A stretch of 64,000 nucleotides of DNA from Devosia sp. 67-54 (GTDB lineage: Bacteria; Pseudomonadota; Alphaproteobacteria; Rhizobiales; Devosiaceae), in assembly GCF_001899075.1 (NCBI RefSeq), contig NZ_MKVA01000011.1, positions 372,001-436,000 of the forward strand, read 5' to 3'. The notes under the pieces were generated by a model that worked only from the letters and a program-made list of their open reading frames with translations, did not search any database and was not told where the DNA came from. Position numbers and translations under genes: made by a program. This document shows, one piece after another, positions 4,014-63,461 of this stretch. Position 1 is the stretch's first letter, and each line of letters starts with the position of its first letter.

Positions 4014-4080
4014 CCCTGAATGTCAGGGCCCCTTGGCAAGGGGCGCCCGCTGCGCGCGCCCCGTTGCATCCCCACCGGCT
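4014..4080. other. two-hairpin element, copy 1 (possible transfer-origin type structure)
   Basis: A perfect hairpin (CCCTGA, ATG loop, TCAGGG; 4014-4028) is followed by CTTGGCAA and a GC-rich hairpin whose arms are GGGGCGC and GCGCCCC around CCGCTGC-type sequence, then GTTGCATCCCC. The same arrangement recurs at 62131-62203, with compensating changes in the arms. It lies in the 3880-4258 interval, where I see no convincing gene. The resemblance to inverted repeats near plasmid/ICE transfer origins is inference. Confidence 0.45.
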
Positions 4081-4258
4081 TTCAACCGCATGAACCATCG
4101 AACCAACCTGCCTTTGGTCTTGCCTGATGGCCAGGAGTCCCACCTGCGACTTTCCGCTTCTCTATCGTTCCGGATGCTCCTACGAGTCTTCGCACGCCGG
4201 CAGGAGCGCAGGCTTGCGATCTTTCCTGCGCGTTTGATGACGCAACGCAAGGCATCGC

Positions 4259-9242: not shown

Positions 9243-10041
9243 GCGGACGACGAATTCTCCCGAGCCGACAGCCGGATTGCCCAGGCTGGCGAACAAGCGA
9301 GCCCTGGTGAACGGCTCGAGCCGCGGGATCGGCCGGGCGATTGCCGAACGGCTCGCAAGCGAGGGCGCCCGGGTGGTCGTCACCTACAATGCGCACAAGG
9401 ACGAAGCCGAGGCGGTGGTGGCCGGTATTGCGATGCGGCACGGCGAGGCGACTGCCATCAAGGCGGACACCAGCTCGGAATCCGACGTCGATCGCCTGAT
9501 CGGGCACACCATCGACACTCTTGGTGGCCTCGATATCTTCGTCAACAATGCCGGGGTGATGAGCTTGCCGGGCTTTTTCGACGTCACCAAGACGCAGTGG
9601 GATCGTACGCTCGCCATCAACCTCTCCGGCTGCTTTCTGGCCGGCCAGAAGGTGGCCCGGCAGATGCTCCAGCAGGGCGGCGGCGGCGCCATTGTCAACA
9701 TCAGTTCCGGCGGCGCCTTTGCCGCTTCGCCGGGCATGACCGCCTACAAGGTGTCCAAGGCCGGCGTGGAGATGCTGACGCGGCTGATGGCTCTCGAGCT
9801 CGCGCCTTACGGCGTGCGCGTCAACTCGATCGCACCCGGCCTGATCGCCACCGACATCAACAAGGATCGACTCGCGGACGAGGGCTATCGGGGCAAGCGG
9901 CTCAGTCAGATCCCGATGCGGGTCATCGGCGAGCCGGACGATATTGCGGCAGGGGTTCTGTATCTCGTTTCGGACGAGGCGAGACTGGTGTCTGGCGCCT
10001 GCCTCAGGATCGACGGCGGGCGGGCGGCCCTGACGCGCTAG
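9235..10041 (+). CDS. short-chain dehydrogenase/reductase
   Basis: The 268-residue protein has the classical SDR layout: NGSSRGIG at 26-33 for the nucleotide, NNAG at 104-107, and the catalytic serine (NISS, 157-158), Tyr171 and Lys175 in YKVSK. The first glycine-motif residue is N rather than T, a tolerated variant. The substrate cannot be read from sequence; relatives oxidise sugars, sugar acids or 3-oxoacyl groups. The start overlaps the end of the ABC ATPase gene, so it belongs to the same operon and probably acts on the imported compound. Confidence 0.88.
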   Translation: MPERTTNSPEPTAGLPRLANKRALVNGSSRGIGRAIAERLASEGARVVVTYNAHKDEAEAVVAGIAMRHGEATAIKADTSSESDVDRLIGHTIDTLGGLDIFVNNAGVMSLPGFFDVTKTQWDRTLAINLSGCFLAGQKVARQMLQQGGGGAIVNISSGGAFAASPGMTAYKVSKAGVEMLTRLMALELAPYGVRVNSIAPGLIATDINKDRLADEGYRGKRLSQIPMRVIGEPDDIAAGVLYLVSDEARLVSGACLRIDGGRAALTR

Positions 10042-10150
10042 AGAACAGCGCTCCAATCGAGAAGCTGTAGAGCCACTCCGGGCTCGATCGACTTAACGAC
10101 CGGACGGGGAACTGCCCGGGCAGCCTTCAGTCACTTGCATGAGGAAAAAC

Positions 10151-53371: not shown

Positions 53372-54187
53372 ATGAGACACGCTTTGACCGCGCTCGCCGC
53401 GACGCTGTTCGCCGCCGCCGCCGCCATCGGTTCCGCCGCTGCCGCTGAGCTGCCCGACCTCAAGGGCCGCACCATCCAGGCGGTCACCGAGAACGCCTAC
53501 ACCCCGCTCAACTTCGCCGATCCGGCCACCGGCAAGGGCATCGGCTGGGAATACGACGCGGTCGACGAGATCGGTAAGCGCCTCAACGCGAAGATCAACT
53601 GGAACGTCATGTCGTGGGACACCATGATCCAGGCCGTGCATGACGGCCAGTTCGACATCGGCATGGACGGCATTTCCATCACCGACGAGCGCAAGGCGCA
53701 GGTCGATTTCTCCGACCCCTACATGGACAACAAGGAATACATGCTGGTCCGCCAAAGCGAGGATCGCATCAGGCAGCCGGGCGATCTCGTCACCAACACC
53801 GACCTCTTGATCGGCGCGCAGTCGGGCACCTCCGGCTTCTACGCCGCCGAAGGCCTGCTCAATCCCGACCTCAAGGACGGCGACACGCCCGACGACAGCC
53901 GCATCAAGCTGTTCGACACCTTCGGCGCCTCGGTGCAGGCGCTCAAGGCCGGCGACGTCGACATGGTGCTGATGGACCAGGCCTCGATCAACGGCTACAT
54001 CGCCGCCGATCCGGGCGTGTTCAAGACCGTGGGCGATCCGATCGGCTCGGACCAGTTCGGCTTCATCTTCAAGCCGGGCTCCGACCTCGTGGCCCCGGTC
54101 AACGCCGCCCTGGCATCGATGCAGGCCGACGGCACCCTCGACGCCCTGAACCGCAAATGGTTCTACGAGTACAGCGCCGCCAAATAG
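53372..54187 (+). CDS. amino-acid ABC transporter substrate-binding protein
   Basis: The 271-residue protein has a signal peptide ([22 protein letters not shown]). The mature family-3 pattern includes [59 protein letters not shown] and a C-terminal [13 protein letters not shown]. It likely binds polar or basic amino acids. The permease gene follows after a 300-base repeat-filled gap. No ATPase gene accompanies them. Confidence 0.9.
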
Positions 54188-54223
54188 CGGCGACGGGGCC
54201 CCATCGACAGTGCGCGTGGCCCC

Positions 54224-54465
54224 ACTCCCGTCCCCTCCCCGCAAGGGGGAGGGGGGCGATAGAGCCGCGAGCGAGATGTGGAAGTCAGGCTCCCCTCCCC
54301 CTTGCGGGGAGGGGTTGGGGGTGGGGGCCACACCCGCCACGCCCGCCACGCCACGTCGCGTCCGCTCCCATGGCGGGGAGGAGCGGGGGCCGGTGCCACG
54401 CTCCTCCGATGAAGCAGTCGGGCTCCCCTCCCCCTTGCGGGGAGGGGCCGGGGGTGGGGGCCAGG
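54224..54465. repeat. compound block of GC-rich palindromic repeats
   Basis: One full copy (54224-54330) is followed by a degenerate arm near 54369-54410 and a further right arm at 54421-54465. The block fills the gap between the binding-protein and permease genes of the amino-acid importer, and could tune expression between them by stem-loops in the mRNA. Confidence 0.7.
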
Positions 54466-54501
54466 CCCACCAGACAAGCATCCACAACCACAGCAGCGCA
54501 C

Positions 54502-55302
54502 ATGCAAGACCGTCACCGCCGACGCCTCGCCGATTTCCCGTACTGGCTGCTCGCCATCGCGCTGCTCGGCATCGTCGCGCTCTGGGCCATCGTCGCCGAC
54601 GGCGACTACACCCGCATCTTCCGGGCGCTGTCGGGCGGCGTGCTCACCACCATGTGGGTGACGCTGGTCGCCTTCGCCCTCGCCATCCTGCTCGGCCTTG
54701 CCGTCGCGCTGATGCGCACCTCCGGCCGGGCGCTGCTGGTGCAGCTCGCGACCTTCTACACCGAGCTGGTGCGCGGCATCCCCATCCTGGTGTTCCTGTT
54801 CTACATCGCCTTCGTCGGCGCTCCGGCCACCATCGTCGCCGCCAACTGGCTCACCGCGCCGCTGCAGCAGTTCGGCTGGATGCCGGCGCTCACCGTGCGC
54901 AATTTCGATCTCACCTGGCGCGCCATCGTGGCGCTGACGATCTGCTATTCGGCCTTCCTCGCCGAAATCTTCCGCGCCGGCATCGAGGCGGTGCCCGAGG
55001 GCCAGCTCGAGGCGGCGCGCGCCATGGGCCTGAGCCGCGGCCAGATTTTCCGCAGGATCGTCGCGCCGCAGGCCTTCCGCATCATCCTGCCGCCGCTCGG
55101 CAACGATTTCGTGTCGATGATCAAGGATTCGGCGCTCGTCTCCTCGCTGGGCGTCCAGGACATCACCCAGCTCGGCAAGGTCTATTCCGCCGCCACCTTC
55201 AAATTCTTCGAAACCTACAACGTCGTCGCCTTCCTCTACCTGACCATGACCATCTCGCTGTCGCTGGTCGTCCGCTACATCGAACACCGCATGAAGCGCT
55301 GA
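54502..55302 (+). CDS. amino-acid ABC transporter permease
   Basis: The 266-residue protein has about five to six membrane segments and the HisM/HisQ-type signature: FYTELVRGIPILVFLFYIAF, and the EAA loop EGQLEAARAMGLSRGQIFRR with VAPQAFRIILPPLGNDF. It forms the channel for the binding protein encoded upstream. ATG 54502 is used because membrane-protein sequence begins shortly after. The earlier in-frame codons come from the repeat block. Confidence 0.9.
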   Translation: MQDRHRRRLADFPYWLLAIALLGIVALWAIVADGDYTRIFRALSGGVLTTMWVTLVAFALAILLGLAVALMRTSGRALLVQLATFYTELVRGIPILVFLFYIAFVGAPATIVAANWLTAPLQQFGWMPALTVRNFDLTWRAIVALTICYSAFLAEIFRAGIEAVPEGQLEAARAMGLSRGQIFRRIVAPQAFRIILPPLGNDFVSMIKDSALVSSLGVQDITQLGKVYSAATFKFFETYNVVAFLYLTMTISLSLVVRYIEHRMKR

Positions 55303-55341
55303 TCCGGCTCTCTGCGTCGCACGACAGCCGCTGCGTGCCCC

Positions 55342-55422
55342 CCCACCTGACTGAAGCACTGGAGAATGCGGCTCCATCGCCCCCCTCCCCCTTGCGGGGA
55401 GGGGCCGGGGGTGGGGGCCACA
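55342..55422. repeat. GC-rich palindromic intergenic repeat, right arm with centre
   Basis: The central segment TGACTGAAGCACTGGAGAAT and GGCTCCATCGCC precede the arm CCCCCCTCCCCCTTGCGGGG. The centre is nearly identical to that in the copy at 56087. CACCGGATGCCGGCC also occurs twice just after it (55426-55485). Confidence 0.7.
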
Positions 55423-55551
55423 TCCACCGGATGCCGGCCAAGCCACCGGATACCCGGTGCCCCATCCACCGGATGCCGGCCCCCCACTTGCGCCCGCCCG
55501 GATCATCCCCACATCATCGCGGTCTTTGGCTCCGTCGAGGGAAACACGCTG

Positions 55552-56052
55552 ATGCTGACCAATCTCGCCCGCGCCGCCGGTGCGCTCGCGCTCGTCGTGC
55601 TGCTTGCCGCCTGCGGCAAGGACAATTCGACCGGCGTCGGCAAGATCAATGTCGACTGGACCGGCAACGACATCGCCATCGAGGCGGTGGAGGACCCCGA
55701 CGTGAAGGGCGTCGTCTGCCACGTCGCCTATTTCAACCGCAGCCTCATCGACCGCCTGCAGCAGGGCAACTGGTTCGAGGATCCGTCCTATTCGGCCATC
55801 GACTGCGCCGCCTCCGGGCCGGTGACGGTGGGCAACATCTCCACCTCCGCCGGCGGCCAGGAGATCTTCAAGCAGCAGCGCAGCCTGATCTTCAAATCGC
55901 TGCGCATCACCCGCATCTACGACAAGGCCAACAACACGCTGCTCTATCTCGCCCATGCCCGCGAGCTGCAGATGGGCTCGGGCAAGATGTCGCTCTCGGC
56001 CGTGCCGCTCAACGGCCTCGACGTCACCTGGAGCAACGGCAAGCCCAACTAA
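55552..56052 (+). CDS. creA: CreA-family lipoprotein
   Basis: The 166-residue protein has a lipobox (VVLLAACGK) and the CreA pattern: IEAVEDPDVKGVVCHVAYFN, SYSAIDCAASGPV, and EIFKQQRSLIFKSLRITRIY with YLAHARELQMGSGKMSLSAV. CreA proteins are periplasmic or secreted and their function is undefined. Length is normal. It is flanked on both sides by GC-rich palindromes. Confidence 0.88.
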   Translation: MLTNLARAAGALALVVLLAACGKDNSTGVGKINVDWTGNDIAIEAVEDPDVKGVVCHVAYFNRSLIDRLQQGNWFEDPSYSAIDCAASGPVTVGNISTSAGGQEIFKQQRSLIFKSLRITRIYDKANNTLLYLAHARELQMGSGKMSLSAVPLNGLDVTWSNGKPN

Positions 56053-56086
56053 GCATCTAGCGATGAGATAGAGCCCGCTGGCTGTT

Positions 56087-56200
56087 GCCCCCCACCCCAG
56101 CCCCTCCCCGCAAGGGGGAGGGGAGCCTGACTGAAGCACCGGAGAATGCGGCTCCATCGCCTCCCTCCCCCTTGCGGGGAGGGACCGAGGGTGGGGGCCT
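56087..56200. repeat. GC-rich palindromic intergenic repeat, full copy
   Basis: Arms CCCCTCCCCGCAAGGGGGAG and CCCTCCCCCTTGCGGGGAGG face each other around TGACTGAAGCACCGGAGAAT and GGCTCCATCGCC. This is one of the best-preserved copies. Confidence 0.75.
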
Positions 56201-56270
56201 CAACCACCGGACATGCGTCCGTTCGAAGCTGAAACGCTTTGGTGGTTGGGCGATCGGACGCCCCCACCAG

Positions 56271-58272: not shown

Positions 58273-60148
58273 GCCGCCACTTTCCACCACCGGAACCACG
58301 ACGTCCGGTAAACCACCATGGAGTGCGGCCCTTTTTGCATGCTGCATCCGGCCGGCACAAGGTGTGCCGCCGCCGCGCCGGCACCGCTCCACAGCCCATG
58401 TTTTCCGGCCTTGCGGCGCCGCCCTCCATGAGTATATTGCCCCCGCCTTTGGAGGGGTGTTCCGCCCCCTCGTCCCGCCCCGTGCGGCAAAGGCCGATGT
58501 CGCCGGCGCCCGCCGCGCGGAGAGATGGCCGAGTGGTCGAAGGCGCACGCCTGGAAAGTGTGTAGGCGGGTAACCGTCTCAAGGGTTCGAATCCCTTTCT
58601 CTCCGCCATTCCTTCAACACCCTCGCCAAGACCACCTAACACATTGAATGGTAAGGTGGTTTCTGGGGTTCGAAAACCCGTTTTCGCGCTGTAAGCCAGT
58701 TTGTCCGAAAACGTCATTCTCAGCACCAGTCTGCGGTAGTCGTAGCGACCCGAATCCCAGAGTTTGGAAGGGTTTGCGAGGAACTCGAAGGCGAGTTCGA
58801 ACAACTCGTCGAACTTGCCTGCCTTCGGCAACGTCTGCCCTGCCTTTTCGAGCAGCACCAGCTTAGTGCGCTCGTGTTCCGCGATGCGCGCTTCGCAGGC
58901 CCGCACAACCGCGTCCGTCGTGCTCTCGACGATGCGATCCACGAGCCGTGCTATGCTTGTCTCAACGGTTGCAAGCTCGCGCTTGTAGTGTGCCGCCATG
59001 GCACTCGCCTGAGCACTTCGCTGATCCCAGGCGTCCTTGAACATCGCCATGGCGAGGTCCATCAGCTTTGCAGAGGGCGTGAGCTGGTCGAGGACACCTG
59101 CGAACTCTCCTTCGATCACGTCACGGCGGATCGACTTGCGGTACTCGCTGCACCCGCGCTTGAAGCACATGTAATAGGGATGCTTCGCGCCGGTCTTGCT
59201 GGTGGACCAGCATGCGGTCAGCGGGTGGTCACAAGAGGCGCAGACCACAGCGCCACGCAGCGGAAAATCGACATTGAGGTCGGTGCGCATAGGCGCACGT
59301 GACCCGTCGATGAGCCGCTGCTGGATGCGTTCGAAGGTCTCGTAGCTCACGAGACCCTCATGACGCCCCTTGCGTCGCGTTACGCCCCAGTCGGCCTTCT
59401 CGACTACGCCGCCATAAAGCACATTGGTGAGCAGGTCATGCGCCTGCTGGTTCGTTATGCGCGTGCGGCGACCCTTACTGAAGTCGGGGTGCTCATTGAG
59501 CCAACGCGCCAGCTCCGCCTGTGAACAGAGCCGGCCAGTTGCGAAGGCCTCAAGACCCTCGGCGATCACCGATGCTTCCGGTTCGACACGCACAAGGATA
59601 TTGCCGACGCCTGCGACGCGTTCCTGGCGCATGCCGCGCGGCGGGATGAATGGCCAGAACCCGTTCAGCAGTCGTCCCTTCATGCGGTCCTTGGTCTGCT
59701 CTGCATTCTGCTCGCGCTGATACTGGGCAGTGGACATCATGAGATTCTCGACCAGGCGCTCGGCCGAGCTGTCGCCGAACTTCATGTTCGGGCTTTCCAG
59801 CCGCCCGCCCGCCGCCGTCAGAAGGTCCCGCAAATCCCAGTGCCCGCGAATGTCGCGTGAAAAGCGATTGGGATGATCCACGATGACGACGAGCTTGTCG
59901 GCGCGGCGGGTGCGCAGGAACTTGATGAGCGCCCCCATTGCGGGGCGGTCGGTCACGCCGCCCGTGACATTGTCACGGAAGACCTCGACCACATCATACC
60001 CCATGCGCTCGGCATACTGACGACAGGTCGCTTCCTGCGACGCGAGGCCATCGCCCTTCCGCACCTGATTGGGGCTGCTGACGCGTGCATAGATGATCGC
60101 GCGCTTGTCGGCGCGATCCATTTCAAAGTCCCACTCAGTATGGCTCAT
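58109..60148 (-). CDS. serine recombinase (large, integrase-like), reading frame runs through tRNA-Ser
   Basis: About 513 residues form a large serine recombinase. [20 protein letters not shown] carries the catalytic Ser24, and [20 protein letters not shown], a recombinase domain with [17 protein letters not shown], and a zinc-ribbon ([17 protein letters not shown]) with coiled coil follow. GGAGG precedes ATG 60148. The C-terminus near [13 protein letters not shown] then continues as [20 protein letters not shown], the antisense of tRNA-Ser, and stays open to 58109, antisense to a neighbouring gene. The added 160 residues come from host DNA. It presumably excises or integrates the element. 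Confidence 0.85.
58519..58608 (+). tRNA. tRNA-Ser (GGA)
   Basis: The cloverleaf is complete: acceptor GGAGAGA/TCTCTCC, D arm with GCCGAGTGGTCGAAGGC, and anticodon stem CACGC/GTGTG around loop CTGGAAA with GGA at 58553-58555. A long variable arm typical of tRNA-Ser and T arm AAGGGTTCGAATCCCTT follow. The discriminator is G, and CCA is encoded (58606-58608). It reads UCC and UCU. The adjacent recombinase marks its 3' end as an integration site. Confidence 0.97.
58575..58608. other. presumed attachment-site core at the 3' end of tRNA-Ser
   Basis: The T-arm and acceptor 3' half lie next to a serine recombinase gene pointing at the tRNA, the usual position of an att core. I found no second copy of GGGTTCGAATCCCTT to the right within the window, so the other end must lie beyond 64000 or be altered. 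Boundaries are approximate. Confidence 0.5.
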
Positions 60149-60548
60149 GAGTCCTCCATTCACGCGGCGCACGGGATGAGCGCGCCTCGTCGGTTTGTTT
60201 TGCGGTTTCGGATTGTCCGGGTACCGATACTACCATCGCGGCAGTCGCGGTGCCTTCAATTACCTTGGACTTATCCATAGCCTGCTGGATCGGGCTCGTT
60301 CCGAACCCGAGATCAACGAAGCCGACCACGATGACCCAAAGCGACTCCAGAAGCTCCTTGCCCTGCGCTTCCGTGAGTTCGCTGTCCTCCAGATATGGCA
60401 GGTACTTGCTCACATCGAAGTTCAGAGCCGTTCGCCCCTCGCCGACAGTGTCGGGATCGTTGAAAACCTGAATCTGGGAGTGGCTCGGCAGCCCGTCGCT
60501 TGCGACGGGGAATGACCCGGCGGCGCTATTGAATTTGTCCTTTATCAT
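60135..60548 (-). CDS. hypothetical protein overlapping the recombinase gene
   Basis: The 137-residue protein contains DVSKYLPYLEDSELTEAQGK and ELLESLWVIVVGFVDLGFG (about 45-83), a helical pattern I associate with short genes that precede serine recombinases in alphaproteobacterial integrated elements. Its last 14 bases overlap the recombinase start, so the two are coupled. It may act as an accessory or directionality factor; this is inference from position. Confidence 0.6.
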   Translation of the reverse strand: MIKDKFNSAAGSFPVASDGLPSHSQIQVFNDPDTVGEGRTALNFDVSKYLPYLEDSELTEAQGKELLESLWVIVVGFVDLGFGTSPIQQAMDKSKVIEGTATAAMVVSVPGQSETAKQTDEARSSRAPREWRTHEPY

Positions 60549-61528: not shown

Positions 61529-61924
61529 TCAGGATGCACCGGCCAGAAGCGCGCGCACGAGCATCAGGCCGAGCAGGAGCGCGCCAAGCGACACGAACAC
61601 CGAGGCGGCGGCATAGCCGACCGCCGCGCCGAACTGTCCGCGTTCGACCAGCAGCACCGTGTCGAGTGAAAACGCCGAGAACGTCGTGTACCCGCCGAGC
61701 ACCCCCGTCGTCAGAAACAGCCGCCATTCCTGCGGCAGACCCGAGCGCTGCGCAAAATACTCGGCGATGATCGCCATGATGAAGCAGCCCGACACATTCA
61801 CCACCAGCGTCCCCATCGGGAAGCCGGTCCCGGCTATCGTGCCCACCACGATGTTCATCCCATGCCGGGCCATGCCGCCAAGCCCGGCCCCGACGAACAC
61901 AATCACAAATCCAAGAGCGCCCAT
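61529..61924 (-). CDS. crcB: fluoride exporter CrcB/Fluc
   Basis: The 131-residue membrane protein has four segments and the Fluc motifs: VFVGAGLGGMARHGMNIVVG, GTLVVNVSGCFIMAIIAEYF (the NxxG motif) and TTGVLGGYTTFSAFSLDTVL (the TTFSxF motif). It exports fluoride as a dual-topology dimer. I start at ATG 61924. A fluoride riboswitch lies about 95 bases upstream, so expression is fluoride-induced. Its presence in a tRNA-bounded element makes fluoride resistance a cargo trait. Confidence 0.94.
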   Translation of the reverse strand: MGALGFVIVFVGAGLGGMARHGMNIVVGTIAGTGFPMGTLVVNVSGCFIMAIIAEYFAQRSGLPQEWRLFLTTGVLGGYTTFSAFSLDTVLLVERGQFGAAVGYAAASVFVSLGALLLGLMLVRALLAGAS

Positions 61925-62017
61925 GGCCACCCCTTCAAGTTGGAGGCCGGGTCCGGTTCGTTCAGGAGGGGTCTTCGCAAAAACATCCCACCGCGACGAA
62001 GCCTTGCAGCCTCTCGT

Positions 62018-62070
62018 TGCAGCAGGAGTTATCAGCCACGACGGCGGTTATCGGGGAGCCCCATCCCCAT
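62018..62070 (-). promoter_or_regulatory. fluoride riboswitch (crcB motif)
   Basis: On the minus strand the sequence reads GGGGATGGGGCTCCCCGATA, then ACCGCCGTCGTGGCTGATAA and CTCCTGC, matching the conserved GATG, CC-AAC and GGCTGAT-A--CCT-C elements of the crcB motif. A T-run (GTTTTTGCG on the minus strand, near 61980) downstream could be part of a terminator expression platform. Confidence 0.82.
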
Positions 62071-62130
62071 CATCAGCAAGAATACCAGAGCAGCAGGGTC
62101 AAGGTCAAAACCCCCCGCAGAAGGATGCGC

Positions 62131-62203
62131 AAGATGTGTGTGGTAGTACCACACATCTTGGCAAAGGGGCCCGCTGCGCGCCCCTGTTGCATACCCCCGG
62201 CCT
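62131..62203. other. two-hairpin element, copy 2 (possible transfer-origin type structure)
   Basis: AAGATGTGTG and CACACATCTT form a perfect 10-base stem (62131-62159), followed by TTGGCAAAGGGG and a hairpin AGGGGC / GCCCCT around CCGCTGCGC, then GTTGCATACCCCCGG. It matches the element at 4014-4080 in order, spacing and flanking words (CTTGGCAA, GTTGCAT), while the stems have compensating differences. Confidence 0.45.
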
Positions 62204-62240
62204 GCGGCGCGGCCTCGGCATTGAGCCTCGTCGCACCGCC

Positions 62241-62486
62241 AACCGTATCGCCGGTTGATCCACTCGTCGGACTTGGAGACGTGCCTCTCCACCGACACCG
62301 TCTGGCCGTTTCATCGCCACTGAGGGGAGCCGTCGCGCTCCCCTGCAGAACCCCATCGACATGAAGGGCGTATCGCCGCCCCTCATGACACCCGCTCGCC
62401 GGACCTGGAGCCTTCCCGCTCCACCGGCACCGGACCATGGAGGAACGTCCGCCGTTCCATCGCGCTCGCGGGAGCCTTCGTGCTCC
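62241..62486. repeat. array of short hairpins with 4-base core stems and about 8-base loops
   Basis: At least seven units follow one plan: AACC-GTATCGCC-GGTT (62241), GGAG-ACGTGCCT-CTCC (62275), GGAG-CCGTCGCG-CTCC (62326), GGGC-GTATCGCC-GCCC (62366), GGAG-CCTTCCCG-CTCC (62407), GGAA-CGTCCGCCG-TTCC (62442) and GGAG-CCTTCGTG-CTCC (62471). Spacing is 51, then 40, 41, 35 and 29 bases over the last six units. Several stems extend by one or two bases, and stem sequences change while pairing is kept. No gene is evident from 61925 to 62640 on either strand. Confidence 0.5.
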
Positions 62487-62644
62487 CCGAGACCCCCATG
62501 ACCAACCGTGCGCCGATTGGATGCCGCCACCGTGGTTGCCGGTGGAGCGCAATGCAAGGTTGGGCGAGCGCCAGCATCTGCGGTCAGCGACCGTTCGACC
62601 GTCGGGCGGGCCGCCCTTCTAGTCTAGTCGCCAAAGGCGGAATT

Positions 62645-62705: not shown

Positions 62706-63461
62706 ATGAAAACAATTACTATTGAAGAACTTTATTTTGCAGATGCTGTGAAAGTAATTTCATCTGCGCAGAAATACATAATTCCCATCCCGGAGCTTTC
62801 AGATGGCGAGCCTCTGATCTACCCAGGCGGATCGAGAGGGAAGGATGGTTCTCTCGTAGAGGGCATGCCGATCGTTGACTGGCAGGGAAATGCCATCGGG
62901 CAGTCGGGGGTCGTTTTCTACAACGGCAAGGACCGAGCGGTGCAGGCGGCGAGAGGCGACGGCAGCGGCGTGATCATTATGAATGAAGTGAATGATCAGC
63001 AGGCAAAGAAGCTTACGTCCTTCATCGAGCAACTCGCAGGGACACCAGAGGCTTTGTCCCTCGCCCAGATCAAGGCCGTTCTCGAAATGGCGAGAGGGCT
63101 TGGCCTGGAGGATACGTACAATTCCGATCGCGGCTTTGTGCAGAGCAAAATGAGCCCTGTTGGAGATCTGGGGGCCGATGGATTTGGGCTGCACAAGCGG
63201 GACGACCGGGACATTTGCCCGGCAATCCGACTGACTGGAGAAGGAACGTTCGCAGGTCCAGCGGCGACACCTCAACAGTTCAGGGATGGGGCAGTAATCG
63301 TTCGGCAGGGCGACAACTATCGTCTGATTCAAAGCGATGTCTTTGAACGGACCTATCGCCACTCGGACAATTCTGCGGTGCGTACCGAGGAGCTTCCCGT
63401 GGGTACGTTGCGCCCGTCTTCCCAACAGAAGGCAGAACTCGCGGCCACGGCCGCCCTGTAA
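62706..63461 (+). CDS. hypothetical protein of the tRNA-Ser element
   Basis: The 251-residue soluble protein starts at an ATG with GTGGAG upstream. The N-terminal part (FADAVKVISSAQKYIIPIPE, WQGNAIGQSGVVFYNGKDRA) resembles an ADP-ribosyl- or nucleotide-type fold only loosely; the middle is helical (AKKLTSFIEQLAGTPEAL) and the end is polar. I do not recognise it. Base composition is lower in GC than the host, consistent with horizontal transfer. A strong hairpin follows its stop. Confidence 0.65.
   Translation: MKTITIEELYFADAVKVISSAQKYIIPIPELSDGEPLIYPGGSRGKDGSLVEGMPIVDWQGNAIGQSGVVFYNGKDRAVQAARGDGSGVIIMNEVNDQQAKKLTSFIEQLAGTPEALSLAQIKAVLEMARGLGLEDTYNSDRGFVQSKMSPVGDLGADGFGLHKRDDRDICPAIRLTGEGTFAGPAATPQQFRDGAVIVRQGDNYRLIQSDVFERTYRHSDNSAVRTEELPVGTLRPSSQQKAELAATAAL

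What the first reader, a model, noticed from the sequence alone, without database searches (positions are those of the whole stretch)
62241..62486. Array of at least seven covarying short hairpins in the integrated element
Units share a 4-base core stem and about 8-base loop, and two units have the identical loop GTATCGCC with completely different stems (AACC/GGTT and GGGC/GCCC). Changes that keep pairing suggest selection on structure. The array lies between crcB and a gene with its own promoter, in a stretch with no credible ORF. It could be a structured RNA, a replication or transfer control region, or a recombination-site cluster.
Basis: partly seen in the sequence, partly recalled or inferred. 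Interest (0 to 1): 0.7.

Follow-up and report, generated by a model that had tools for sequence, protein, structure and literature searches.

The report
Hairpin array in defence-carrying mobile islands
A stretch of DNA built from many small hairpins is a conserved, unnamed part of a family of gene islands that move between Alphaproteobacteria and carry anti-phage genes; its folding is clearly under selection, most likely as an RNA, but what it does is unknown.

Summary
The array is real and longer than reported: window 62129 to about 62560, nine hairpins (eight strong) behind conserved 'leader' hairpins. Stems covary (16 of 23 leader pairs changed on both sides; 0 of 500 shuffles as high); loops are kept. 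Indels are rarely in threes, so it is not coding. No Rfam match. Internal mismatches are A.C 31 to G.T 0 on +, so the minus strand is what folds. The island is a 31.4-kb integrative mobilizable element at tRNA-Ser: serine recombinase, array, Mza defence genes, ArdC, coupling protein, relaxase. Ten leader-bearing genomes share much of this plan. Starting from the relaxase instead, 13 of 14 elements have the leader (three weakly) and 6 a full array. Defence families lie right of the array, hardly left. The array's strand flips relative to the relaxase, against a transfer-origin role and for RNA; yet no minus-strand promoter was found. Function is inferred only.

The parts
62129..62161 (.). leader hairpin H1: palindrome with GTAGTAC centre; in relatives the arms covary and the centre is TAGTA or TACTA, so it shows no strand preference
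62160..62190 (-). leader hairpin H2: GCAA-GGGG / CCCC-GTTGC type with conserved loop CGCTGCGC (+ strand)
62204..62239 (-). leader hairpin H3: two stacked helices, apical loop TCAAT on the minus strand
62240..62257 (-). H4, CAACCG-tatcgc-CGGTTG
62266..62296 (-). array unit L (core TGGAGA-cgtgcc-TCTCCA at 62274-62291, outer GTCGG/CCGAC)
62303..62319 (-). array unit, TGGC-cgtttcatc-GCCA (weak, 4 bp)
62323..62344 (-). array unit, AGGGGAGC-cgtcgc-GCTCCCCT
62360..62387 (-). array unit C, 11-nt arms with hexaloop tatcgc; one internal A.C on + (G.U/G.T on minus)
62398..62428 (-). array unit L (core TGGAGC-cttccc-GCTCCA at 62406-62423, outer GCCGG/CCGGC)
62442..62458 (-). array unit, GGAACG-tccgc-CGTTCC
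62470..62487 (-). array unit E, GGGAGC-cttcgt-GCTCCC
62502..62520 (-). array unit D, CCAA...TTGG type, imperfect here
62527..62545 (-). array unit S, CCACCG-tggttgc-CGGTGG; last recognisable unit
58519..58608 (+). tRNA-Ser(gga), integration target
58599..58614 (+). left copy of the 16-bp direct repeat CTCTCCGCCATTCCTT (attL); right copy at C11:461956, outside the window
58640..60172 (-). large serine recombinase of the element (frame stays open to 58109, through the tRNA; the true end was not determined)
60135..60548 (-). small protein next to the recombinase; relatives sit beside it in other elements
61529..61930 (-). crcB (PF02537)
62016..62077 (-). fluoride riboswitch of crcB, not part of the array
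62706..63461 (+). 251-aa cargo gene, no Pfam or PADLOC match

Best explanation
The array is a conserved non-coding module of a family of alphaproteobacterial integrative mobilizable elements (IMEs). It has a nearly universal leader of two hairpins (H1, H2) and, in many elements, a run of further hairpins that combine about a dozen unit types with fixed loops and spacers but freely changing, covarying stems. Defence cargo follows it. The folded strand is the minus strand in window coordinates. The mechanism I hold most likely is that this strand is made as a structured RNA, read from the cargo side towards the leader. It would offer many copies of a few hexaloops (GCGAUA, GCGAAG, AGGAAC and similar), so as to bind and titrate or scaffold one RNA-binding protein in a multivalent way, much as CsrB-type RNAs work, for a regulatory purpose of the element. 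SHOWN: structure, covariation, strand, distribution, element context, position next to defence cargo. INFERRED: that the molecule is RNA rather than single-stranded DNA. Only PROPOSED: the multivalent protein-binding role and its target.
For: Covariation: 95.9% of 1604 cells paired, 16 of 23 pairs with double changes, 0 of 500 shuffles as high, sliding the partner drops pairing to 33-53%. Strand: among unique loop-anchored hairpins, internal single mismatches are A.C 31 against G.T 0 on +; all hairpins of 116 arrays, 63 against 9; leader read on minus, G.T 65 against A.C 13, with one pair present as CG 27, UG 20, UA 19. Acceptor stems of 28 distinct tRNAs as positive control: G.T 14, A.C 4. 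Non-coding. Relaxase right of the array in 10 of 10 leader-anchored genomes; leader-like match in 13 of 14 relaxase-anchored elements, none on reversed sequence. Leader + in 8 and - in 5 relative to the relaxase, as a transcribed unit may do but a T-strand element should not. Defence families right of the array, hardly left.
Against: No sigma-70-like signal on the minus strand at the right end: 4.3% of 94 regions above the 95th shuffle percentile, against 13.8% on +; the test is weak. The right end is ragged and differs between loci, so a fixed RNA 5' end is hard to place. No T-run after H1 for a terminator. No RNA-seq could be consulted. G.T pairs are also tolerated in single-stranded DNA. 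H1 shows no strand preference. 7 of the 13 relaxase-anchored leaders have little or no array behind them. The multivalent-binding idea has no direct test here.
Confidence: 0.48

Rival explanations
1. Single-stranded-DNA element of conjugation: the hairpins fold in the transferred or nicked strand and serve as relaxase, priming (ssi/sso) or single-strand promoter (Frpo-like) sites.
For: Every leader-anchored element examined has a relaxase (10 of 10) and 9 of 10 a coupling protein left of the array. G.T tolerance also fits DNA. No promoter is needed. A weak motif TTA...GACC borders the sharp left edge.
Against: Orientation relative to the relaxase is not fixed: + in 8, - in 5 of 13. Stems are not conserved in sequence, so no promoter boxes lie in them, unlike Frpo (for its definition). 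With a recalled MOBP nic motif near mobC the T-strand would be +, the wrong strand, but no clear nic site was found across elements.
Confidence: 0.24
2. Cargo-loading site: hairpins act as recombination sites or homology tracts at which defence modules are exchanged, as attC sites do in integrons.
For: Defence families are right of the array, hardly left. Arrays share a prefix and then diverge, often at spacers. In the home island a second, partial array lies behind two cargo genes, with 95% identity over 80 bp to the end of array 1.
Against: Separate second arrays within the fetched stretch are rare: 4 of 122 loci, the home island among them. The right borders printed (75 of 111) show no common motif by eye. 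No integron integrase was among the recurrent neighbours; attC consensus was not tested.
Confidence: 0.14
3. No function: selfish or neutral palindromes kept perfect by template-switch correction, so pairing is preserved without selection on a fold.
For: Pairing is very strict (WC 2297 of 2369 cells) and units shuffle and decay; several elements keep only the leader.
Against: Loops and spacers are conserved across the class, the strand bias of mismatches is extreme (31:0), and the leader is kept in 13 of 14 elements chosen by their relaxase.
Confidence: 0.08
4. Bidirectional control region: the leader (with its GTAGTAC palindromes) is operator DNA between a minus-strand transfer block and plus-strand cargo, and the array is a long leader of one of the two operons.
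For: Where a coupling protein was found (21 of 124 loci) it is on minus in 21 and left of the leader in 20; leader and coupling protein are on opposite strands in 11 of 12 elements where both were seen; H1 is strand-symmetric and similar palindromes recur upstream.
Against: The nearest left ORF is + in 56 and - in 53 loci (ORFs chosen by length, so noisy). In some elements, the home island included, the coupling protein lies right of the array. An operator would conserve its arms, which here covary.
Confidence: 0.06

Closest known systems
CsrB/RsmZ-type sponge RNAs (recalled)
   Same: string of short hairpins, few conserved loops, variable stems and number
   Different: only a minority of loops hold GGA on the minus strand (AGGAAC, GGGACG, GCGGA); the commonest, GCGATA and GCGAAG, do not
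REP/BIME palindromic repeats (abstract of PMC3733652 seen)
   Same: short palindromes in arrays outside genes, in Alphaproteobacteria
   Different: one leader per genome in 15 of 16 genomes, two in one, against high copy for REPs; tied to one element family
Frpo/ssi single-strand promoters (passages of PMC11541004 seen)
   Same: structured non-coding DNA of conjugative elements that also carry anti-restriction genes
   Different: Frpo carries -35/-10 boxes in its fold; here stem sequence is free and loops are fixed
Large ornate RNAs of mobile elements such as GOLLD, ROOL, HEARO (recalled)
   Same: several hundred nucleotides, non-coding, on mobile DNA
   Different: no Rfam match; modular number and order of units rather than one fixed fold

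Membership tests
Known Rfam RNA family | score above the family's cut-off | tested here: not met
   window at gathering cut-offs: only tRNA and the fluoride riboswitch; 62100-62640 at E up to 5, none; 7 relatives at E up to 0.1, two tRNAs and one sub-threshold hit opposite a tRNA
REP/BIME repeats | high copy number in one genome | tested here: not met
   2 leaders in the home genome; 1 in 15 of 16 and 2 in 1 of 16 other genomes, all chosen as leader carriers
REP/BIME repeats | GTAG or CGTC tag at one end of the palindrome | not tested
   GTAG occurs inside the H1 centre (seen by eye)
Frpo-like single-strand promoter | -35 and -10 boxes held in the fold | tested here: not met
   stems vary freely in sequence
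oriT | fixed orientation to the relaxase gene (an expectation, recalled) | tested here: not met
   + in 8 and - in 5 of 13 elements
oriT | nicked by the element's relaxase | not testable with these tools
   needs biochemistry or mating
CsrB/RsmZ sponge RNA | GGA in most hairpin loops (recalled) | tested here: not met
   loop counts
Integron attC | attC core sites and a cognate IntI | not tested
   no integrase of that type appeared among recurrent neighbours
Structured RNA | covariation with wobble intermediates on one strand | tested here: met
Structured RNA | a transcript | not testable with these tools
   no expression data on hand; promoter scan negative
Integrative mobilizable element (the island) | recombinase, att repeats at a target, relaxase | tested here: met

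The most novel reading that the evidence does not exclude
A new class of modular, multivalent structured RNA, carried by a class-wide family of mobilizable islands at the border of their defence cargo. Selection holds loop identity and base pairing while units are shuffled, and the RNA governs transfer, cargo expression or a host RNA-binding protein.
Probability: 0.35. Interest if true: 0.88.

Novelty: categorically new. Interest (0 to 1): 0.74.

Why it matters
It is a strongly selected non-coding structure in a widespread vehicle of anti-phage defence genes. It has no match in Rfam, and the eight paper searches made here listed nothing on it (openly licensed papers only). If it is an RNA it would be a new kind of regulator or scaffold carried by mobile islands. 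In any case its leader motif is a handle for finding these islands and their defence cargo in genomes.

Tried and rejected
Coding sequence: rejected, indels not in threes. Known RNA: rejected. The fluoride riboswitch accounts for most of the plasmid hits at query 87-177 (window 61986-62076) and is separate from the array. Phage origin: no phage record for the window's stretch, 2 viral contigs with the leader (L137, L138 not examined). Plus-strand RNA: rejected by mismatch polarity. oriT/T-strand role: disfavoured by flipped arrays. Looking for oriT by a conserved nic motif beside mobC gave no clear site. A direct-repeat search for att sites in the 10 islands found none of 18 bp or more (whose tRNA part failed and was redone). 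Minus-strand promoter: not found. Eight paper searches for the array, its sequence or the element listed nothing on it.

Weak points of my own work. The att core is only 16 bp, and a 15-bp match to the neighbouring bases also lies elsewhere (C11:414975); the call on attR rests on its place at the end of the mobility genes. The tRNA antisense line is out of register and was not used. The query LSR_L017 was cut at guessed coordinates and is unreliable; the window recombinase carries the claim. MobC was named by eye. In one search the 14 G.T at columns 89/110 sit beside alignment gaps and may be partly misalignment. Mismatch and indel counts come from related sequences and are not independent events. 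ORFs in my neighbour counts were picked by length alone and some, above all on the left, will be spurious (the window's own left ORF is antisense to real genes). The first left control used shorter ORFs than the right set; one search repeats it with the same cut-offs. The 10 islands were chosen because they carry the leader, so the leader being shared by all of them is no evidence by itself. Of 30 relaxase matches listed (home genome included) I took 14, with ordinary-length relaxases and mostly on long contigs. Of 74 leaders listed I aligned 71 (L044, L064, L129 left out); leaders without a recognisable H1 or H4 were left out of the alignments (72 of 99 rows with H1 were used). Of the 118 stretches only 80 titles were shown.

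Full report
CHECK. In 62221-62590 there are 9 non-overlapping hairpins, 8 with six or more Watson-Crick pairs, against a mean of 1.36 and a maximum of 5 in 200 dinucleotide shuffles. The two GTATCGCC loops with different stems are at 62241-62256 and 62366-62381. The real left edge is at 62129, where two further hairpins, H1 and H2, form what I call the leader.

RELATIVES. blastn found non-coding relatives on alphaproteobacterial plasmids (Devosia, Bradyrhizobium, Tritonibacter, two Rhizobium species). No feature is annotated under them, save that the Tritonibacter record has no annotation at all. All but the Bradyrhizobium one begin with a similar leader. Of the 80 titles shown, five are labelled Gammaproteobacteria, Chromatiales or Nitrosomonas; the rest are Alphaproteobacteria as far as their names tell. 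Counts on drawn samples: 4 of 385 genomes of the class, home genome included, and 1 of 398 of the phylum, the home genome; the reversed pattern found none. Among 16 carriers, 15 have one leader and 1 has two. Viral contigs gave 2, phage records none for the window's stretch.

ANATOMY. Conservation starts sharply at GCAAG of H1. H1 and H2 are followed by H3 and H4 and then by units of about a dozen types, reordered between loci. The right end is ragged: median end 349 nt from the leader in 111 loci. A few loci hold the leader alone. Relatives share a prefix of the array and then part, often at the spacers GACCA or GAGAC (45 of 198 pairs printed). Indels are rarely multiples of three, 377 of 7104 pairwise events, so the array is not coding.

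COVARIATION AND STRAND. In 70 distinct rows of H4-H3-H2, 95.9% of 1604 cells pair, 16 of 23 pairs show changes on both sides, and no measure is reached in 500 shuffles; sliding the partners drops pairing to 33-53%. Mismatches are polar. Internal single mismatches in unique loop-anchored hairpins read on the + strand are A.C 31 and G.T 0, besides other types (AA 13, GA 7, CC 5, CT 5, GG 4, TC 2, TT 2). Over all hairpins of 116 arrays the figures are 63 against 9, while three shuffles show no such bias (5:5, 11:8, 7:8). Leaders read on the minus strand give G.T 65 against A.C 13, and one pair occurs as CG 27, UG 20, UA 19. Acceptor stems of 28 distinct tRNAs from the sequences on hand, read in sense, give G.T 14 and A.C 4. 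A first count on 72 leaders read on + gave WC 2297, A.C 21, G.U 10, other 41, the same direction but weaker. So the minus strand is the one that folds. H1 is an exception: its centre is TAGTA or TACTA and shows no strand.

THE ISLAND. A 16-bp direct repeat links the 3' end of tRNA-Ser (window 58599) with C11:461956, 31.4 kb away. Between them lie a large serine recombinase, a small protein, crcB with its riboswitch, the array, two genes of unknown function, a second partial array, a 578-aa protein without Pfam match, a DNA methylase and Vsr with MzaB, C, D and E homologues, a Fic protein, a patatin, an IrrE-like protein, ArdC, a coupling protein and a MobA/VirD2-type relaxase, and a MobC-like protein (by eye).

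THE FAMILY. In 10 other genomes with 40 kb read around the leader, a homologous relaxase lies right of the array in 10 of 10, ArdC in 8, a coupling protein left of it in 9, and the recombinase within the 12 kb read on the left in 5; where found, each has the same strand throughout. These ten were picked because they carry the leader. For a test without that choice I started from the relaxase: 19 of 111 genomes of the order have one at E up to 1e-60, 30 matches in all with the home one. I fetched 6.5-40 kb left of 14 of them. A leader-like match lies in 13 of 14: ten well supported (53-120 of 122 leader queries), three weak (G824a 30, G844a 16, G817 1), and none in G853, read for only 20 kb; the same queries on the reversed sequences give none. 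A full array follows in six (G845, G788, G786, G769, G847, G844b); the other seven keep little beyond H1-H2 or H2-H3. Relative to the relaxase, the leader is + in 8 and - in 5, while the recombinase is on the relaxase's strand in all 11 elements where it was found. Leader and coupling protein are on opposite strands in 11 of 12 elements where both were seen; G847 is the exception.

NEIGHBOURS. The first ORF right of the array matches restriction and defence families: N6_Mtase 12, ResIII 12, MmeI helicase spacer 10, DEAD 10, Eco57I 7 of 107. In PADLOC 464 models are hit, the commonest (mad2) by 22 of 107. The first ORF left, chosen with the same cut-offs, hits 9 PADLOC models, none by more than 2 of 100, and mad2 by 1 (with shorter ORFs, 4 models, at most 2 of 106), and no Pfam family in more than 4 of 106. 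Within 4.5 kb left, on the minus strand, a coupling protein is found in 20 and a serine recombinase in 16 of 124 loci, two near-identical pairs included. The nearest left ORF is + in 56 and - in 53; the nearest right ORF is + in 75 and - in 36.

MECHANISM. The strand polarity needs a folded single strand: RNA or DNA. A T-strand or oriT role predicts a fixed orientation to the relaxase, which is not seen, so I favour RNA. Against it stands the lack of a visible minus-strand promoter and of a fixed 5' end. Repeated presentation of a few hexaloops suggests multivalent protein binding; this step is a proposal only. The link to defence cargo may mean control of, or exchange of, that cargo.

KNOWN KINDS. 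Tests against Rfam, REP/BIME, Frpo, oriT and CsrB-type RNAs each fail on a feature I take as defining or expected (membership table); attC was not tested. Papers: search listings for all eight searches, the abstract of PMC3733652, and passages of PMC11541004 and PMC11104534 were seen; no paper was read whole. I call it categorically new because no tested kind fits; if it proves to be an RNA, a stricter reader may call it a new RNA class.

Noticed in passing
window 4029-4090 (C11:376033): A second leader in the home genome, with almost no array after it, between a gene also found left of other leaders and a gene that looks like a LysR-type regulator; probably a relic of another element.
   Followed up: partly
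L008 2490-2760 (C11:436390-436660): Second, partial hairpin array without leader behind two cargo genes; shares 95% identity over 80 bp with the end of array 1 and runs on further.
   Followed up: partly
L008 4751-13875: Mza-type defence system (MzaB, C, D, E by PADLOC, with DNA methylase and Vsr) as cargo of the island.
   Followed up: partly
loci, 20-75 bp left of the leader: In some loci further small palindromes with GTAGTAC/GTACTAC centres and variable arms, of the form TNGTNNNACNA (recalled as a GntR/FadR-type site).
   Followed up: no
G745 island, 9938-10102 right of leader (just left of ArdC): Another stretch shared by up to 6 other islands ahead of ArdC, perhaps a conserved control region.
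   Followed up: no
L024, L116, L127, L128 left of the leader: Extra H1-like pieces (such as GCGAGATGTG or GCAAGATGTG) a few tens of bases further left, as if part of the leader had been duplicated.
   Followed up: no
window 54160-56270: Overlapping ORFs on both strands share motifs like [12 protein letters not shown] and PPPCGEGLGVGA, which suggests a dispersed palindromic repeat in the host genome.
   Followed up: no
L007 3540-4920: On a Novosphingobium plasmid crcB with a riboswitch-like match sits beside a DUF6118 gene and Ti-type traA; crcB may be a recurrent passenger of alphaproteobacterial mobile elements.
   Followed up: no
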